In this document: in pieces, positions 97-6,054 of the stretch | How the letters are laid out: every line of letters begins with the position of its first letter | How positions within the stretch are numbered: the first letter of the stretch is position 1 | Source of the DNA: Campylobacterota bacterium | GTDB taxonomy: Bacteria; Campylobacterota; Campylobacteria; Campylobacterales; Sulfurovaceae | NCBI GenBank assembly: GCA_013153675.1 | Contig: JAADEA010000010.1 | Coordinates: 1 to 7,803 of the forward strand | DNA: 7,803 nt | Direction of reading: 5' to 3' | Notes under the pieces: generated by a model | What the model was told of the DNA's origin: nothing | Seen by the model: the letters and a program-made list of their open reading frames with translations, nothing else | Databases searched by the model: none | Made by a program: the position numbers and the translations under genes

Positions 97-116
97 TCAA
101 ATATGATCGCTACTTT
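87..116 (-). terminator. Hairpin overlapping the 3' end of the NO reductase unit
   Basis: On the minus strand AAAGTAGC-GATCA pairs with TGATT-GCTACTTT across a TATT loop. This gives a 13-base-pair stem with a single G-U wobble. The TGA stop codon of the last gene (99-97) lies in the descending arm. Only three U residues close the stem and AAAAUUAA follows, so the U-tract is poor. It may be an intrinsic terminator or an mRNA 3'-end stabilising structure. The stem itself is clear; the function is inferred. Confidence 0.5.
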
Positions 117-702
117 CATCAATAAATAGATCTTCTTTTTTAATACATCCAAGATCTTCCATCTGTTTTAATAAATTTAAATTATAATTATAAATATTCT
201 CAAATCTCTTCTTTTCTTGTTGAAATTTTCTCTTCTCCTTTTTAGCATACCACCAAGCAATCAAAATTGAAAGAGCAAAAAAGGTATATATCTCTATTTG
301 CCAATCTTTTAAATTTAAAAGAACTATTAAATATTGAACAGAAAACAAAACAAAAAATTCAATTGAAAATATAATTACCAATACTGAGCTTTGAGCAAAG
401 TCAAGAGTATATTTCTCAATATTTTTCAAAATTTTTAAATTTGAATTAAACTCTTTTGCTCTCTCTTTACACTTTGGATCTAATTTATCTATATCTATCT
501 CTTTTATATGAATATTACTTAAATTATACTCCACATTTAACTGTTTATAAGCTTCTAAAATATCACTATTACTCTTTAAAAGATTTTCAATATCCTCATA
601 GGTAGGATTCTCTTTATTTAAAGCCCTCTTAACATCTTCTAAGATTAAATTATAAAAACCAATATCTTTAATCTCTTTTGCTACCCTTTTTAAATTAATC
701 AC
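97..702 (-). CDS. Uncharacterised two-helix membrane protein, third gene of the NO reductase unit
   Basis: I do not recognise this family. With the GTG start at 702 it has 201 residues. The N-terminal ~100 residues are charged and helical. Two hydrophobic segments follow at about 105-130 and 137-153, then a basic helical stretch (KKEKRKFQQEKKRFE) and a short acidic tail. The basic residues after the second helix suggest that both ends face the cytoplasm. There is no signal peptide, Cys-pair metal site or heme c motif. It begins 15 bases after the catalytic subunit, and its AAAAAGGAG ribosome site overlaps that gene's TAA, so co-transcription is near certain. A TTG two codons earlier (708) lies only two bases from the site, whereas GTG 702 is eight bases away, so I chose GTG. 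By position it could be an assembly or anchoring factor for the reductase, but nothing in the sequence proves that. Confidence 0.8.
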   Translation of the reverse strand: MINLKRVAKEIKDIGFYNLILEDVKRALNKENPTYEDIENLLKSNSDILEAYKQLNVEYNLSNIHIKEIDIDKLDPKCKERAKEFNSNLKILKNIEKYTLDFAQSSVLVIIFSIEFFVLFSVQYLIVLLNLKDWQIEIYTFFALSILIAWWYAKKEKRKFQQEKKRFENIYNYNLNLLKQMEDLGCIKKEDLFIDESSDHI

Positions 703-710
703 CGCCAAAG

Positions 711-719
711 CTCCTTTTT
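711..719 (-). promoter_or_regulatory. Ribosome binding site that decides the start of the 201-residue protein
   Basis: Minus-strand AAAAAGGAG overlaps the stop codon of the preceding catalytic subunit (720-718). It leaves 8 bases to GTG 702 but only 2 bases to TTG 708, so it favours the GTG start. The overlap with the upstream stop suggests translational coupling. Confidence 0.6.
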
Positions 720-2400
720 ATGCTTTAGCGGCACTATTTTCTTGAGCTTCTATACCATAAGTAGCTATATTATTTTTTGCTGGTAAAAATATTCCAACTA
801 AACCTTTTAATCCCACACTCATTATAATATTAAATAAAAATATAAACCACGCAATTAAAACCATACTTCCAAATATAGCTCCAAGAATCATCCATGTATT
901 AAATTCCCCATTTACATATAAATGGCGTCTTAGCATACCATCAAGTCCAGCCATTCCAACAAACGCACCCATACCAATACCACCAATTAGATATAGCCAA
1001 AAGTGAGTCCATGTAAGCTTTTTACTAAATATCTTTGTATTATTAGTAACCATTGGCCAAAGTACATATAAAGCACTATATAAAGTCATATACAATCCTA
1101 CAATTAATGCCATATGAAAATGGGCAAAACTAATCCATTGGGTATTATGTAATACTCTATTCATTCCCATATCAGCCTGAATAATTCCAGCAGGTACTGC
1201 TAATCCAAATCCAATTAACCCTGCTAATAAATAGGCAAGTTCAGGAGTCATTTTAAGAGGGCGCCCCTTCCACAAAGTTACAAGAGTAATAAATAGAGCC
1301 AAACCTTGAGTTAACAACTCAAATGCTGTAACCATCTCTCCAGATACAAGTTTCATCATCTCTGGCTGAGGCTGATCTGCTAATAGGTGATGACTCCATA
1401 CCATCCAAGATACCACCAACTCTAATAAAAGAGCAGCTCTTGCCACATTCTCCATAAAAAGCTTTTGTCCACTAATAATAGTAGCTAAAAGATACCAAGT
1501 TCCAGCTACATAAATTAATACAAGCCCATCTGCTACCAAATCAAGTCCCCACCAAAAATAGTTTTTGTATAATAAAGAGTCTATTGCATGTAAATCTAAA
1601 TTAAATCCTCCAGCATAAGCTACTAAATATACCAATACTAAAATTCCAGCTCCCAAAATTACAATAGCATCTAAAAATGTATCAACTGTTCCTCTAAATA
1701 TAGCAACTACTGGCAAAGATAGAGCAGGCTCTTTAGAATATGGAGGTTTACCCCTTAATTTTCTAATTAAATTTAAAAGTCCATCGATTCCAAATCCAGA
1801 GATTAATAACTCTTTTGTAGTTTTATTTGCGTGTACTCCAACCTTAGCAAAAATAGTTGCATAAATATTATAAATAAAGCCAATTGTTCCAATCATTATC
1901 ATTGCAATACCAATAACAAAAATAATTCCTCCAATAATTTTAAACTGTTTCACATCAGCTGGTAGAGGCCAATATAAAGTATATAAAGGTGCATAATGCC
2001 AAATAAAAGCAGCAATCCAAGCAAGAGCAGTCCCAAGAGTTATCATAATCCAAACAAAATTGGCAAGTTTTATACTATATAGAGGTTTTTTAGTCAAATA
2101 TGGGACCAAAAACATAAAAGCAGCAAAAACAAGCTGATATGTAGAACCAAAAATTCCAACAATTGGATGAACTGTCATAATAGAGAAAAAGTGGTCTGGA
2201 TGGGAAAACATCTTTGGTAGAGGGTTAGATGGACCAATCTCAACCATTCTCATAATCATTCCCTCAATTGCCACAAGCCCAAAAAATAAAAAGCTCATTA
2301 CAACAGCTCTTAGAGTAACTTTTTGCAAAGCACTTAAACTATTTGCATCAAAATTTGTACCATTAATTAATGTATCAAAAAAGCTTTTTTTACTCTCCAT
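718..2400 (-). CDS. Heme-copper superfamily nitric oxide reductase, catalytic subunit (gNOR-like)
   Basis: This 560-residue protein with about 12 membrane helices belongs to the heme-copper oxidoreductases and probably reduces NO to N2O at the cytoplasmic membrane. Visible landmarks are the low-spin heme ligand H78 in SIMTVHP, the metal-site pair H337-H338 in WSHHLL, H427 (high-spin heme) and H429 (low-spin heme) in AHFHM, and R491-R492 near the heme propionates. Helix 6 reads WWGLDLVADG at 283-292. Aligned with cNOR (HLWVEG), the first metal-ligand His becomes D287 and the catalytic Glu becomes D291. The Tyr of oxygen reductases is absent from helices 6 and 7. A polar loop at about 185-228 separates helices 4 and 5. 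The RBS AAGGAG lies 5 bases before the ATG and overlaps the stop region of subunit II. From memory this matches gNOR of Campylobacterota. NO reductase is well supported; the subfamily is less so. Confidence 0.85.
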   Translation of the reverse strand: MESKKSFFDTLINGTNFDANSLSALQKVTLRAVVMSFLFFGLVAIEGMIMRMVEIGPSNPLPKMFSHPDHFFSIMTVHPIVGIFGSTYQLVFAAFMFLVPYLTKKPLYSIKLANFVWIMITLGTALAWIAAFIWHYAPLYTLYWPLPADVKQFKIIGGIIFVIGIAMIMIGTIGFIYNIYATIFAKVGVHANKTTKELLISGFGIDGLLNLIRKLRGKPPYSKEPALSLPVVAIFRGTVDTFLDAIVILGAGILVLVYLVAYAGGFNLDLHAIDSLLYKNYFWWGLDLVADGLVLIYVAGTWYLLATIISGQKLFMENVARAALLLELVVSWMVWSHHLLADQPQPEMMKLVSGEMVTAFELLTQGLALFITLVTLWKGRPLKMTPELAYLLAGLIGFGLAVPAGIIQADMGMNRVLHNTQWISFAHFHMALIVGLYMTLYSALYVLWPMVTNNTKIFSKKLTWTHFWLYLIGGIGMGAFVGMAGLDGMLRRHLYVNGEFNTWMILGAIFGSMVLIAWFIFLFNIIMSVGLKGLVGIFLPAKNNIATYGIEAQENSAAKA

Positions 2401-2409
2401 ATTCTCTCC

Positions 2410-3006
2410 TTATCTACTTGCTACTTTATCTTTTTTACACTCTACTACCATTGCATCTTTTACAAACATTAAATCTTTTCCATCTTCACTATATTGTCTT
2501 GGTCCAGAATATTCAGTAGAAATTAGATCAAATTTTCCACACTCATTAAATGTCCATAAAATATCATTTTTATATTTTGGAACCACCTGCATTTGAAACA
2601 CCATAGTGCCATCTTTACGAAATAACCCAAATCCATATGTTAAATCTTTACTTCTTACATCAAATCTTACCTTCTCACCCTCTTTTGCTTTCATTGGTTT
2701 TTGTGGTAATTTCCATTTATGGTTAGCTACTTCAATCTTATACTCTCTATTAGCCTCTATCTTATCCCTCATAATATCTTCTGCTACCCAAGGAATTGCA
2801 TTATATGTAAATATATGATGTCCAACTCCAGCAGCAACCAAAAAAGCTATATAGCCATAAAAAGGAATTCTTACAATCGATTTAACTTTTTCTTTTCTTG
2901 TTAAATTAATACCAAACCAAGCTACTACGGAGATAATTAATAAAGAATAGATCGTATAGGCTACCCAGTGAAATTTTAGCAGCTCTATCGATGTAGCAAA
3001 TGTCAT
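2410..3006 (-). CDS. Subunit II-like cupredoxin protein of the NO reductase, lacking CuA ligands
   Basis: A 198-residue protein with two N-terminal membrane helices (about 12-33 and 48-68) and a C-terminal periplasmic cupredoxin-like domain (about 89-190), the layout of cytochrome oxidase subunit II. The CuA ligands are gone: DxxH is D-L-T-Y (Y124), and the CxExCGxxHxxM loop reads S163-T-E-Y-S167-G-P-R-Q171, with Glu where Met is expected. Only E165 and the Gly remain. There is no CxxCH. It therefore probably shapes or stabilises the complex, or docks a donor, rather than passing electrons through copper. Its gene precedes the catalytic subunit, with a stop 9 bases before that start. I chose ATG 3006, which has AAAAGGAG 5 bases upstream. 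The longer TTG start at 3039 would lie inside the predicted -10 element. Confidence 0.85.
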   Translation of the reverse strand: MTFATSIELLKFHWVAYTIYSLLIISVVAWFGINLTRKEKVKSIVRIPFYGYIAFLVAAGVGHHIFTYNAIPWVAEDIMRDKIEANREYKIEVANHKWKLPQKPMKAKEGEKVRFDVRSKDLTYGFGLFRKDGTMVFQMQVVPKYKNDILWTFNECGKFDLISTEYSGPRQYSEDGKDLMFVKDAMVVECKKDKVASR

Positions 3007-3031: not shown

Positions 3032-3080
3032 AGGAGCAATATTAAGTCTAAAAAGTGGCTAAAAAATTGATCTATATCAA
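3032..3080 (-). promoter_or_regulatory. FNR-type class II promoter of the NO reductase unit
   Basis: A perfect FNR/DNR-type palindrome, TTGAT-N4-ATCAA, occupies 3067-3080. A -10 hexamer, TAATAT, lies at 3044-3039 on the minus strand. From the palindrome centre (3073.5) to the start of the -10 is 30 bases. This puts the operator at -41.5 relative to a start point near 3032, the textbook position for class II activation by a CRP/FNR-family protein. There is no convincing -35 hexamer, as expected for an activator-dependent promoter. The resulting leader is about 25 bases and holds the RBS. The site differs from the TTAAC-N4-GTTAA box I associate with Campylobacter NssR. The regulator is not encoded in this window. 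Confidence 0.7.
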
Positions 3081-4490: not shown

Positions 4491-5060
4491 TTACTTCTTT
4501 TCTATTAAATTATAGAGCTCTAAAATATCTTGATTTGAAATATATGCATTAGAGTATCTATCTAAATATTCTAACGCAATATCCCCATATCCACTCTTTA
4601 TTAAATCTTTAATAAACTCTATAAAATCCTCCTTTTTAGAAATAATTACTTTTGTAGAAAATATAATATCTTCAAAAGTCTTTTTAAAATCCCCTCTCTC
4701 TTTTACAAGTTTTTTAAAATCCTCATAGCTAATACCATTTTCCCCCTCATTTCCCCTACTTTGTAAAATTTTATTTAACTCTTTTGTAATTACTACTCTA
4801 CTCTCTACAATAGTATTTAAGAGCTGCTCAATTATCTCATCTGCATCTTCTGCCTCATCTTTTATACTTTGATAATAATCAAATAAAGCTTGAGCATCCT
4901 CTTCACTCTCACTTCCTAAATCACAAAGACTAACCCCAACTATTGCATCTTTTAACTGAGGGTCCTCTTTTAACAAGAGACTATAAAGTTTCATTGCACT
5001 ATTATAATCTCCCTTTAAAAAGCAACCCTCAGCTCTTTCTAATAGTCTTTTTTTGTCCAT
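4491..5060 (-). CDS. Small TPR-like helical protein upstream of murE
   Basis: An acidic, all-helical cytoplasmic protein of 189 residues with no signal peptide or membrane segment. Residues about 6-47 resemble a tetratricopeptide repeat (ERAEGCFLKGDYNSAMKLY, then LLKEDP), with the spacing of small and aromatic residues typical of TPRs. The middle (about 50-100) is strongly acidic. The C-terminal helices include another repeat-like stretch near 158-171 (GYGDIALEYLDRY). A protein-binding or scaffold role is the usual inference for TPRs; no enzyme motif is visible. Its stop lies one base before the GTG of murE, so the two form one transcript. I start at ATG 5060, where AAAAGG lies 8 bases upstream, rather than at the TTG at 5063. 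The product could be linked to cell-wall synthesis, but the evidence is positional only. Confidence 0.8.
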   Translation of the reverse strand: MDKKRLLERAEGCFLKGDYNSAMKLYSLLLKEDPQLKDAIVGVSLCDLGSESEEDAQALFDYYQSIKDEAEDADEIIEQLLNTIVESRVVITKELNKILQSRGNEGENGISYEDFKKLVKERGDFKKTFEDIIFSTKVIISKKEDFIEFIKDLIKSGYGDIALEYLDRYSNAYISNQDILELYNLIEKK

Positions 5061-5183: not shown

Positions 5184-5207
5184 CAGAGGAAAATTACTTC
5201 TCCTCTG
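5184..5207 (-). terminator. Hairpin with the stop codon of the YfdX gene in its loop
   Basis: On the minus strand CAGAGGAGAA pairs with TTTTCCTCTG over a GTAA tetraloop of GNRA type. This gives a 10-base-pair stem with one G-U wobble. The TAA stop (5196-5194) begins inside the loop. The following bases, TTAATTTCCCC, are only moderately U-rich. It probably marks the 3' end of this transcript, as a terminator or protective structure. Confidence 0.5.
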
Positions 5208-6054
5208 CTTTTGGCATCTCTTTTGCTTTATGGATTTTATTAAAAGTTGCCATATATTTATTTAATTTTTCTTTTAACTCTTCAAAAATATCTTTTGTGC
5301 CTTTATCTTTATCTGCTAAGATAGATTCTATCTTCTCAATTTCATCAAGCAGATCTTTATAATCCTCTTTTACTTTACCATATCCAAGAGCTTGAGCCAA
5401 TAGCAGTTGCTCTTTTGCATACTCAAGCAACTCTTTTAACTCTTCTTTATTTGCATCATCTTTACCTTTTGTTAAATCACTTGCTCTTTCTATTGCTTTT
5501 TGTGCTCTTAGCACTGGTAGAGGAATTACAATTTTTTCTAATACTAATGTATCTAAAATCTCTATTAAAAGCTTTTTAGCCTCTTGAAAATCTCCTGCTT
5601 CAATTAGAGGAATAATTCCTTTAATTGCTGCTGGATATGCACCAACTGGCAATAGTGTAATAAAGATATCAAGTTCACTTGCTAAATTTAACATAATATC
5701 TCTTGCTGCTTGTAGCTCATCATCTTCAATAAGCTCTTTTAAAACCTCTTTTGTATGAACAATATCATCTACTGTTCCTGGATAATCTATTACTTGTTCT
5801 CTAATATCAACTGGTACTTGAGATAAGTTTGGATCTCTTGCTAAGAGAACTTCAATTTTTCCAAGAGATTTTTCACAAGCTTCAATTGCTTTTTCTTTAT
5901 CTTGCTTATCTATTGCTTCTAATACCTCTCCAATTAAATTTAAAGCTTCAATTGCTTCATTTGAAACTCTTTTTAACTGCTCATTTACATAGTTATCTTG
6001 TGCATTATCTACTTTTTGAGTAACCTCTTTTTTCTCTACCTTTCTTTTTCCCAT
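5194..6054 (-). CDS. YfdX-family helical protein
   Basis: A 286-residue, highly charged, all-helical protein. Residues about 24-190 follow the YfdX pattern: a first helical pair (EAIEALNLIGEVLEAIDKQD), a central VPVDIREQ segment (80-87) where the family has LPVD or LPID, the hallmark DIFITLLPVGAYPAAIKG (129-146), then LIEAGDFQEAKKLLIEIL and a closing IPLPVLRAQKAIERA. The last ~95 residues form a lysine/glutamate-rich helical extension with coiled-coil character. The N-terminus (MGKRKVEKKEV) is basic with no signal peptide, so the protein is predicted to be cytoplasmic, unlike secreted YfdX versions. YfdX proteins have been linked to acid and other stress in enterobacteria, with no known reaction. 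The ATG has AAGGAG 7 bases upstream. It is apparently monocistronic, flanked by its own -10 and a 3' hairpin. The family call is from motif recall, not a search. Confidence 0.75.
   Translation of the reverse strand: MGKRKVEKKEVTQKVDNAQDNYVNEQLKRVSNEAIEALNLIGEVLEAIDKQDKEKAIEACEKSLGKIEVLLARDPNLSQVPVDIREQVIDYPGTVDDIVHTKEVLKELIEDDELQAARDIMLNLASELDIFITLLPVGAYPAAIKGIIPLIEAGDFQEAKKLLIEILDTLVLEKIVIPLPVLRAQKAIERASDLTKGKDDANKEELKELLEYAKEQLLLAQALGYGKVKEDYKDLLDEIEKIESILADKDKGTKDIFEELKEKLNKYMATFNKIHKAKEMPKAEEK

What the first reader, a model, noticed from the sequence alone, without database searches (positions are those of the whole stretch)
718..2400. NO reductase with Asp replacing a metal-ligand histidine
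Helix 6 has WWGLDLVADG instead of the His-containing motif of oxygen reductases (GHPxVY) or cNOR (HLWVEG). All other heme and metal histidines are intact, so this is a real subfamily feature and not decay. The active-site metal would be held by two His and probably D287, with D291 in place of the cNOR Glu and no active-site Tyr. It fits what I recall of gNOR, a group known mainly from genomes, so its chemistry and proton supply remain open.
Basis: partly seen in the sequence, partly recalled or inferred. Interest (0 to 1): 0.75.

Follow-up and report, generated by a model that had tools for sequence, protein, structure and literature searches.

The report
gNOR-type nitric oxide reductase operon
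This is a relative of the oxygen-respiring enzyme in which an aspartate stands where a metal-holding histidine should be; its family is already known from genomes as a likely nitric oxide reductase, and its control region fits a nitrogen-oxide role, but its activity has not been measured here.

Summary
ORF 718-2400(-) is a heme-copper subunit I with five of six canonical histidines; the sixth (helix VI) is Asp287, and the oxidase-Tyr/cNOR-Glu position is Asp291. Both Asp are in 240 of 240 listed relatives (capped lists) and 111 of 111 loci (8 duplicates), so it is a family trait. The family is gNOR (norGH), already proposed from genomes, tabulated with active-site residue D and called quinone-oxidising: a new member of a known kind.

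Added here: the norH partner lacks both Cys and both His of CuA; a third gene (97-708) follows norG in 92 of 103 non-duplicate rows; an Nss/Crp-Fnr-type box TTGA-N6-TCAA precedes norH in 73 of 95 loci, with a -10-like hexamer at the class II distance in 72 of 73; gNOR tracks nirS (27 of 31 gNOR genomes, 18 of 267 others, kinship not corrected). These point to nitrogen-oxide respiration or NO detoxification.

Not shown: NO reduction, metal identity, Asp287 ligation (no model coordinates; low confidence there). No gNOR outside Campylobacterota was examined.

The parts
718..2400 (-). norG: gNOR catalytic subunit, heme-copper subunit I, 560 aa
   Evidence: COX1 E 5.2e-50; heme-copper subunit I fold; one clade with other gNOR 100/100
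1528..1542 (-). codons of D287 (1542-1540) to D291 (1530-1528), helix VI DLVAD
1387..1392 (-). codons of H337 and H338, the HH metal-ligand pair
   Evidence: invariant 94 of 94
1318..1320 (-). codon of E361, invariant acid aligned with the Glu of the cNOR motif SALE
1114..1122 (-). codons of H427 (high-spin heme) to H429 (low-spin heme); assignments by alignment
2167..2169 (-). codon of H78, low-spin heme ligand by alignment
2410..3006 (-). norH: subunit II-like cupredoxin protein, 198 aa, without the Cys and His ligands of CuA
   Evidence: Cox2 CuA domains E 3.9e-6; conservation in 103 rows; reading frame
97..708 (-). third gene of the operon, 203 aa, membrane-type protein of unknown role
   Evidence: directly follows norG in 100 of 111 loci; no Pfam/NCBIfam match; no PDB fold match
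3067..3080 (-). Nss/Crp-Fnr-type box TTGATATAGATCAA before norH
   Evidence: perfect match, 0.03 expected in the window; conserved in relatives
3039..3044 (-). -10-like hexamer TAATAT, 36 nt after the box start

Best explanation
This is a gNOR (norGH) complex of a campylobacterium. NorG keeps ligands for a low-spin heme (H78, H429) and a high-spin heme (H427) [ligands shown, hemes inferred]. Beside the high-spin heme a non-heme metal, most likely iron, is held by H337, H338 and the carboxylate of D287 [inferred]. D291 and E361 form an acidic second sphere that supplies protons to bound NO, as glutamates do in cNOR [inferred from position]. NorH is an oxidase subunit II without the Cys and His of CuA [shown in sequence], so electrons probably come from quinol rather than from cytochrome c through CuA [inferred]. 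The operon norH-norG-third gene is controlled by an Nss/Crp-Fnr-family regulator at a class II promoter [box and spacing shown, binding inferred]. It reduces 2 NO to N2O during denitrification or to remove toxic NO [inferred].
For: D287/D291 at ligand and +4 positions by spacing and alignment, invariant. CuA ligands replaced in NorH. gNOR co-occurs with nirS in 27 of 31 genomes against 18 of 267 others, with cNOR in 26 of 31 against 17 of 267, with nosZ in 24 of 31 against 64 of 267. TTGA-N6-TCAA box before norH in 73 of 95 loci, -10-like hexamer at 35-37 nt in 72 of 73; the published box lies 48-49 nt before napA, norE and nosB starts in Nitrosophilus labii (PMC11539149), whose gNOR is P0121/L139. 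norHG lies divergent to norCB and near nirS in L071. Published naming: gNOR residue D (PMC8756737 Table A4), quinone-oxidising norGH (PMC8906906).
Against: No activity, metal or heme data. The clade lies with A/B oxygen reductases. 26 of 31 gNOR genomes already carry a cNOR, so its NO role would often be redundant. 4 of 31 gNOR genomes showed no strong nirS match and 22 of 95 loci lack the box. The window's own other genes (murE, polX, YfdX-domain, a 190-aa protein) are not nitrogen-oxide genes. In 45 of 81 loci no such gene was recognised within 6.5 kb, many with short flanks.
Confidence: 0.7

Rival explanations
1. It is a divergent oxygen reductase of B-family descent that works at very low O2 without the cross-linked Tyr and with one Asp ligand.
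For: Tree placement with A/B oxygen reductases, 95/90; best PDB sequence matches are ba3 oxidases; databases name relatives cbb3-type oxidase.
Against: No Tyr at the +4 position in 240 of 240 listed relatives; strong co-occurrence with nirS; nitrogen-oxide type promoter box; a cbb3 oxidase was found in most of the gNOR genomes searched with COX1, which already covers low-O2 respiration.
Confidence: 0.13
2. It handles NO in another way: an NO-stress or signalling protein, or an enzyme with a different nitrogen-oxide reaction such as NO dismutation.
For: 26 of 31 gNOR genomes already have cNOR, which leaves room for another task; activity unmeasured. PMC6094997 (passages) calls the role of gNOR in Ca. 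Methylomirabilis unknown, perhaps nitrosative stress.
Against: Complete heme and metal ligand set with a subunit II suggests turnover. G180, G263 and G305 have gNOR and cbb3 as their only COX1 matches above cut-off; G263 and G305 have nosZ, but no nirS or nirK was found in the three. NO dismutation was not tested.
Confidence: 0.1
3. D287 does not bind the metal: the site has two His only, or a residue from elsewhere or water completes it, and D287 is a proton relay.
For: No coordinates; low model confidence at helix VI; H466 and H418 are also invariant.
Against: D287 sits exactly at the ligand position by spacing and ungapped alignment and never varies; carboxylates are common iron ligands (established knowledge).
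Confidence: 0.25

Closest known systems
gNOR (norGH), proposed by Hemp and Gennis 2008, Sievert 2008, Murali 2024 (none of these held; seen through later papers)
   Same: Active-site residue D, Campylobacterota genera, two genes norGH, quinone-type; [quoted passage not shown]
   Different: Nothing found; no annotated gNOR reference sequence was available to align. The third gene and promoter are added here and not named in the passages read.
cNOR (NorBC)
   Same: Acid at the +4 position of helix VI and an acid in helix VIII (E361 aligned with the SALE Glu)
   Different: cNOR keeps the helix VI His (H in 4 of 4 rows) and uses NorC; separate clade 100/100
B-family (ba3-type) oxygen reductases
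   Same: Best PDB sequence match; HNTQW and AD motifs; nearest in the tree at 79/73
   Different: H and Y are D and D; CuA Cys and His absent from subunit II; one extra residue before the heme His in helix X
2-His-1-carboxylate iron sites of soluble enzymes (established knowledge, works-like only)
   Same: Inferred ligand set of two His and one Asp
   Different: Unrelated fold; here beside a heme in a membrane protein

Membership tests
gNOR | Heme-copper subunit I fold and five heme/metal His | tested here: met
gNOR | Active-site residue D in place of Tyr/Glu (PMC8756737 Table A4) | tested here: met
   D291, 94 of 94 rows
gNOR | Helix VI ligand His replaced by Asp (recalled as a family trait, not seen in print) | tested here: met
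   D287, 240 of 240 listed proteins
gNOR | Two-gene unit norGH | tested here: met
   norH next to norG in 111 of 111 loci, including 8 duplicates
gNOR | Quinone oxidation | not testable with these tools
   Only the absence of CuA Cys and His is seen
gNOR | No proton channel (0 in Table A4) | tested here: inconclusive
   The B-type helix VI Tyr at +7 and +11 from the active-site Tyr are absent in gNOR rows; E46 and E327 are invariant; no structure
gNOR | Clade with published gNOR sequences | tested here: inconclusive
   No annotated gNOR reference was available; relatives fall in Sulfurimonas and Sulfurovum, genera named in Table A4
gNOR | NO reduction | not testable with these tools
   Not counted as biochemically characterised in PMC11388526
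cNOR | Helix VI HLWVE with ligand His | tested here: not met
   DLVAD
cNOR | Clade with cNOR | tested here: inconclusive
   Apart in the best tree; union not rejected, AU p 0.13
B-family oxygen reductase | Ligand His and cross-link Tyr (HxxxY), CuA in subunit II | tested here: not met
B-family oxygen reductase | Clade with B family | tested here: inconclusive
   79/73
cbb3 oxidase (database name of relatives) | ccoN model and GHN motif | tested here: not met
   No ccoN hit; best NCBIfam 82 bits against a cut-off of 671; motif absent

The most novel reading that the evidence does not exclude
A heme plus non-heme iron centre in which the iron is held by two His and one Asp, with two further invariant acids (D291, E361), in a quinol-fed complex of three proteins (NorH, NorG and the 203-aa third protein) under Nss-type nitrogen-oxide control: an iron site built differently from the three-His sites of solved heme-copper enzymes.
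Probability: 0.4. Interest if true: 0.6.

Novelty: new member of a known kind. Interest (0 to 1): 0.42.

Why it matters
gNOR has been proposed from genomes but is not among the four NO reductase families that PMC11388526 lists as biochemically characterised. The promoter and co-occurrence data are an independent reason to place it in nitrogen-oxide metabolism, and they add a candidate third component. Relatives are named cbb3-type oxidase in databases, so the capacity to form N2O may be under-called. Cultured carriers (Nitrosophilus labii, Hydrogenimonas thermophila) make a structure of the Asp site feasible.

Tried and rejected
Own-genome search: no genome held. The primary gNOR papers are not held, so whether the His-to-Asp change is in print could not be checked; no passage I read names it (paper searches). 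D287-metal distance: not measurable, the structure tool gives no coordinates. NssR-like word TTAAC-N4-GTTAA (recalled consensus): 0 of 95 exact, not enriched. AU test of gNOR+cbb3 did not finish. A regex count of E361 over 240 proteins was too narrow (141 found, 99 not matched); the aligned count 94 of 94 is used. The two multi-family MAFFT alignments set cNOR helix VI in different, shifted registers, so the register for cNOR rests on spacing. Fold search of the third protein: 0 matches at E 0.001 or better; a missing match does not show a new fold. Sigma-70 scan: 14 found, 18.2 expected, uninformative.

Rows dropped: 8 duplicate loci (L111, L112, L114, L115, L118, L121, L123, L124); 8 further loci without enough upstream DNA in the box counts. 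Alignment A2 has the window, L041, L071 and 91 of the 240 listed proteins. The COX1 genome search used 40 of the 80 loci. Presence lists were copied by hand: gNOR = E under 1e-100 (27 weaker matches are other oxidases by length and score, not counted), nirS = PF02239 at E under 1e-40, cNOR = 65% identity or more to the L071 protein (five NorB-like proteins at 38-41% not counted).

Full report
What is there. The window holds seven main genes on the minus strand: polX, a YfdX-domain protein, a 190-aa protein without a Pfam hit, murE, norH (2410-3006), norG (718-2400) and a 203-aa gene (97-708). The close relatives that carry names are Campylobacterota, mostly metagenome-assembled (Nitratifractor, Hydrogenimonas, Sulfurovum, Sulfurimonas).

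The Asp observation. NorG has H78, H337, H338, H427 and H429 and, in helix VI, FWWGLDLVADG. Against Thermus ba3 the alignment is ungapped and puts D287 on the ligand His and D291 on the active-site Tyr. A spacing test needs no aligner: from the helix VI residue to the first His of HH it is 50 in 9 of 9 gNOR, 51 in 7 of 7 cNOR-like, 50 in 5 of 5 cbb3 and 49 in 12 of 12 A/B-type sequences, and the residue four further on is D, E, A and Y. D..D is in 94 of 94 aligned rows, 240 of 240 listed proteins and 111 of 111 loci including at least 8 duplicates, over identities down to 56%. It is fixed in what was sampled, which is Campylobacterota as far as named; the lists are capped at close relatives.

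Other active-site traits. E361 is invariant (94 of 94) and aligns with the Glu of the cNOR motif SALE; the A, B and cbb3 rows have no acid there. PMC3431322 (passages) reports experiments in which Glu280 and Glu211 of cNOR are critical for activity and proton uptake, though its own simulation finds the path through Glu280 less likely; that E361 corresponds to Glu280 is my reading. gNOR also has one extra residue before H427. PMC10256718 (passages) gives three His, or three His and Glu, as FeB ligands in solved NORs and notes variable coordination among subfamilies.

Partner. NorH matches Cox2 CuA domains (E 3.9e-6), with ISTEYSGPRQ where the CuA protein has ICSEICGANH and Tyr for its other His; the Met position lies outside the matched stretch. 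Y124 and E165 are in 103 of 103 rows. No standard CuA can form. This agrees with the published label quinone-oxidising, non-electrogenic gNOR = norGH (PMC8906906, passages).

Third gene. It follows norG in 100 of 111 loci, 92 of 103 rows without duplicates. Of the 11 without it, seven end within about 350 bases of the end of the stored DNA, L033 is long and lacks it, and L138-L140 show no detectable copy. No Pfam or NCBIfam match; the model is fair (pLDDT 84) without a PDB fold match. Subunit or assembly factor is a guess.

Promoter. In the 250 nt before norH the one clearly enriched 5-N4-5 palindrome is TTGAT/ATCAA: 54 of 95 loci (next word 7), 71 of 95 with one mismatch, against 0 and 1-6 in five single-base shuffles. 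Per base such sites are about 189 times rarer elsewhere in the loci, and 50 of 54 22-mers are distinct. A TANNNT hexamer stands exactly 36 nt after the box start in 34 of 54 (maximum 10 in 200 shuffles). With the published consensus TTGA-N6-TCAA, 73 of 95 loci have a site, about 50-fold over the rest, and 72 of 73 have the hexamer at 35-37 (no shuffle was run for that count). Seven of the nine most divergent loci, L131-L136 and L140, lack the exact TTGAT form; L134, L135 and L136 lack the looser one too. In L065 the counted site lies 72 nt before the divergent operon and may serve that one. In Nitrosophilus labii exact boxes lie 48-49 nt before the predicted starts of napA, norE and nosB (PMC11539149, passages), the same geometry. 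PMC6682613 (passages) says no FNR orthologue is found in Campylobacterota and names Nss regulators for nitrate, NO and N2O in Wolinella, so an Nss-type regulator is the likelier one. In the window the box is 3067-3080 (0.03 matches expected); a second perfect match lies inside another gene at 4869-4882. In L071 and L065 the same box stands 74 and 72 nt before the divergent operon that leads into norCB.

Genome context. Of 298 sampled Campylobacterota genomes 31 have gNOR. nirS: 27 of 31 against 18 of 267; cNOR: 26 of 31 against 17 of 267; nosZ: 24 of 31 against 64 of 267; a NorB-like protein of qNOR length: 0 of 31 against 37 of 267. Kinship was not corrected and completeness is not given. G180, G263 and G305 have gNOR and cbb3 as their only COX1 matches above cut-off, with nosZ in G263 and G305 and no nirS or nirK found. 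Genes I read as nitrate, nitrite or NO genes lie within 6.5 kb of gNOR in 36 of 81 loci, 18 of 32 with more than 4 kb on both sides. This count is loose: it has no background control, several names are mine, and the named representatives scored below NCBIfam cut-offs (NarK 219 of 312, NirJ 397 of 515; the molybdopterin enzyme scores best with a formate dehydrogenase model).

Phylogeny and fold. With motif columns left out, gNOR is one clade (100/100) on the A+B oxygen-reductase side (95/90), nearest B at 79/73. Unions with cNOR (p 0.13), with cNOR and cbb3 (p 0.31) or with A (p 0.37) are not rejected, and joined long branches are flagged. [quoted passage not shown] The model (pLDDT 77, pTM 0.82) has the heme-copper subunit I fold but is weak at 271-300, so Asp287 ligation stays untested.

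What is known. PMC8756737 Table A4 (first part of the section read) lists gNOR with active-site residue D, 0 proton channels, in Sulfurimonas, Sulfurovum and Persephonella. It does not say which of the two positions the D is. PMC6094997 (passages) reports gNOR in Ca. Methylomirabilis with role open. I recall, but could not check, that the primary papers describe a changed metal ligand. Family and residue swap are not claimed as new. The third gene, promoter and counts were not met in the passages read; that is not proof that they are unpublished.

Verdict. A genuine gNOR and a new member of a known kind. My odds: NO reductase role about 0.75, Asp287 as metal ligand about 0.7; both unproven.

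Noticed in passing
window 97-708(-): Conserved third gene of the norHG operon, 203 aa, no known family or PDB fold match.
   Followed up: partly
L015:4226-5107 and relatives: A further small protein lies about 0.65 kb downstream of norG in 55 of 81 loci, not in the window; no Pfam or NCBIfam match.
   Followed up: no
L141:569-1936, L142:483-1862, L110:1480-2859: A second cNOR-like protein of about 460 aa with HLWVEA in some gNOR genomes, sister to cNOR in the tree.
   Followed up: no
P0002, P0012, P0121, P0128 and others: gNOR proteins are named cbb3-type cytochrome c oxidase subunit I in databases, and no gNOR model appeared among the NCBIfam matches.
   Followed up: no
298 Campylobacterota genomes: gNOR and NorB-like proteins of qNOR length were not found together: 0 of 31 gNOR genomes against 37 of 267 others (Fisher p 0.02, kinship not corrected).
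   Followed up: no
window 4869-4882: A second perfect TTGAT-N4-ATCAA match lies inside the 190-aa coding gene; meaning unknown.
   Followed up: no
L006/L114 and L127: norG in these two genomes carries one in-frame TAA; sequencing error or decay, not examined.
   Followed up: no
window 5194-6054(-): YfdX-domain protein of 286 aa next to a 190-aa protein without a Pfam hit.
   Followed up: no
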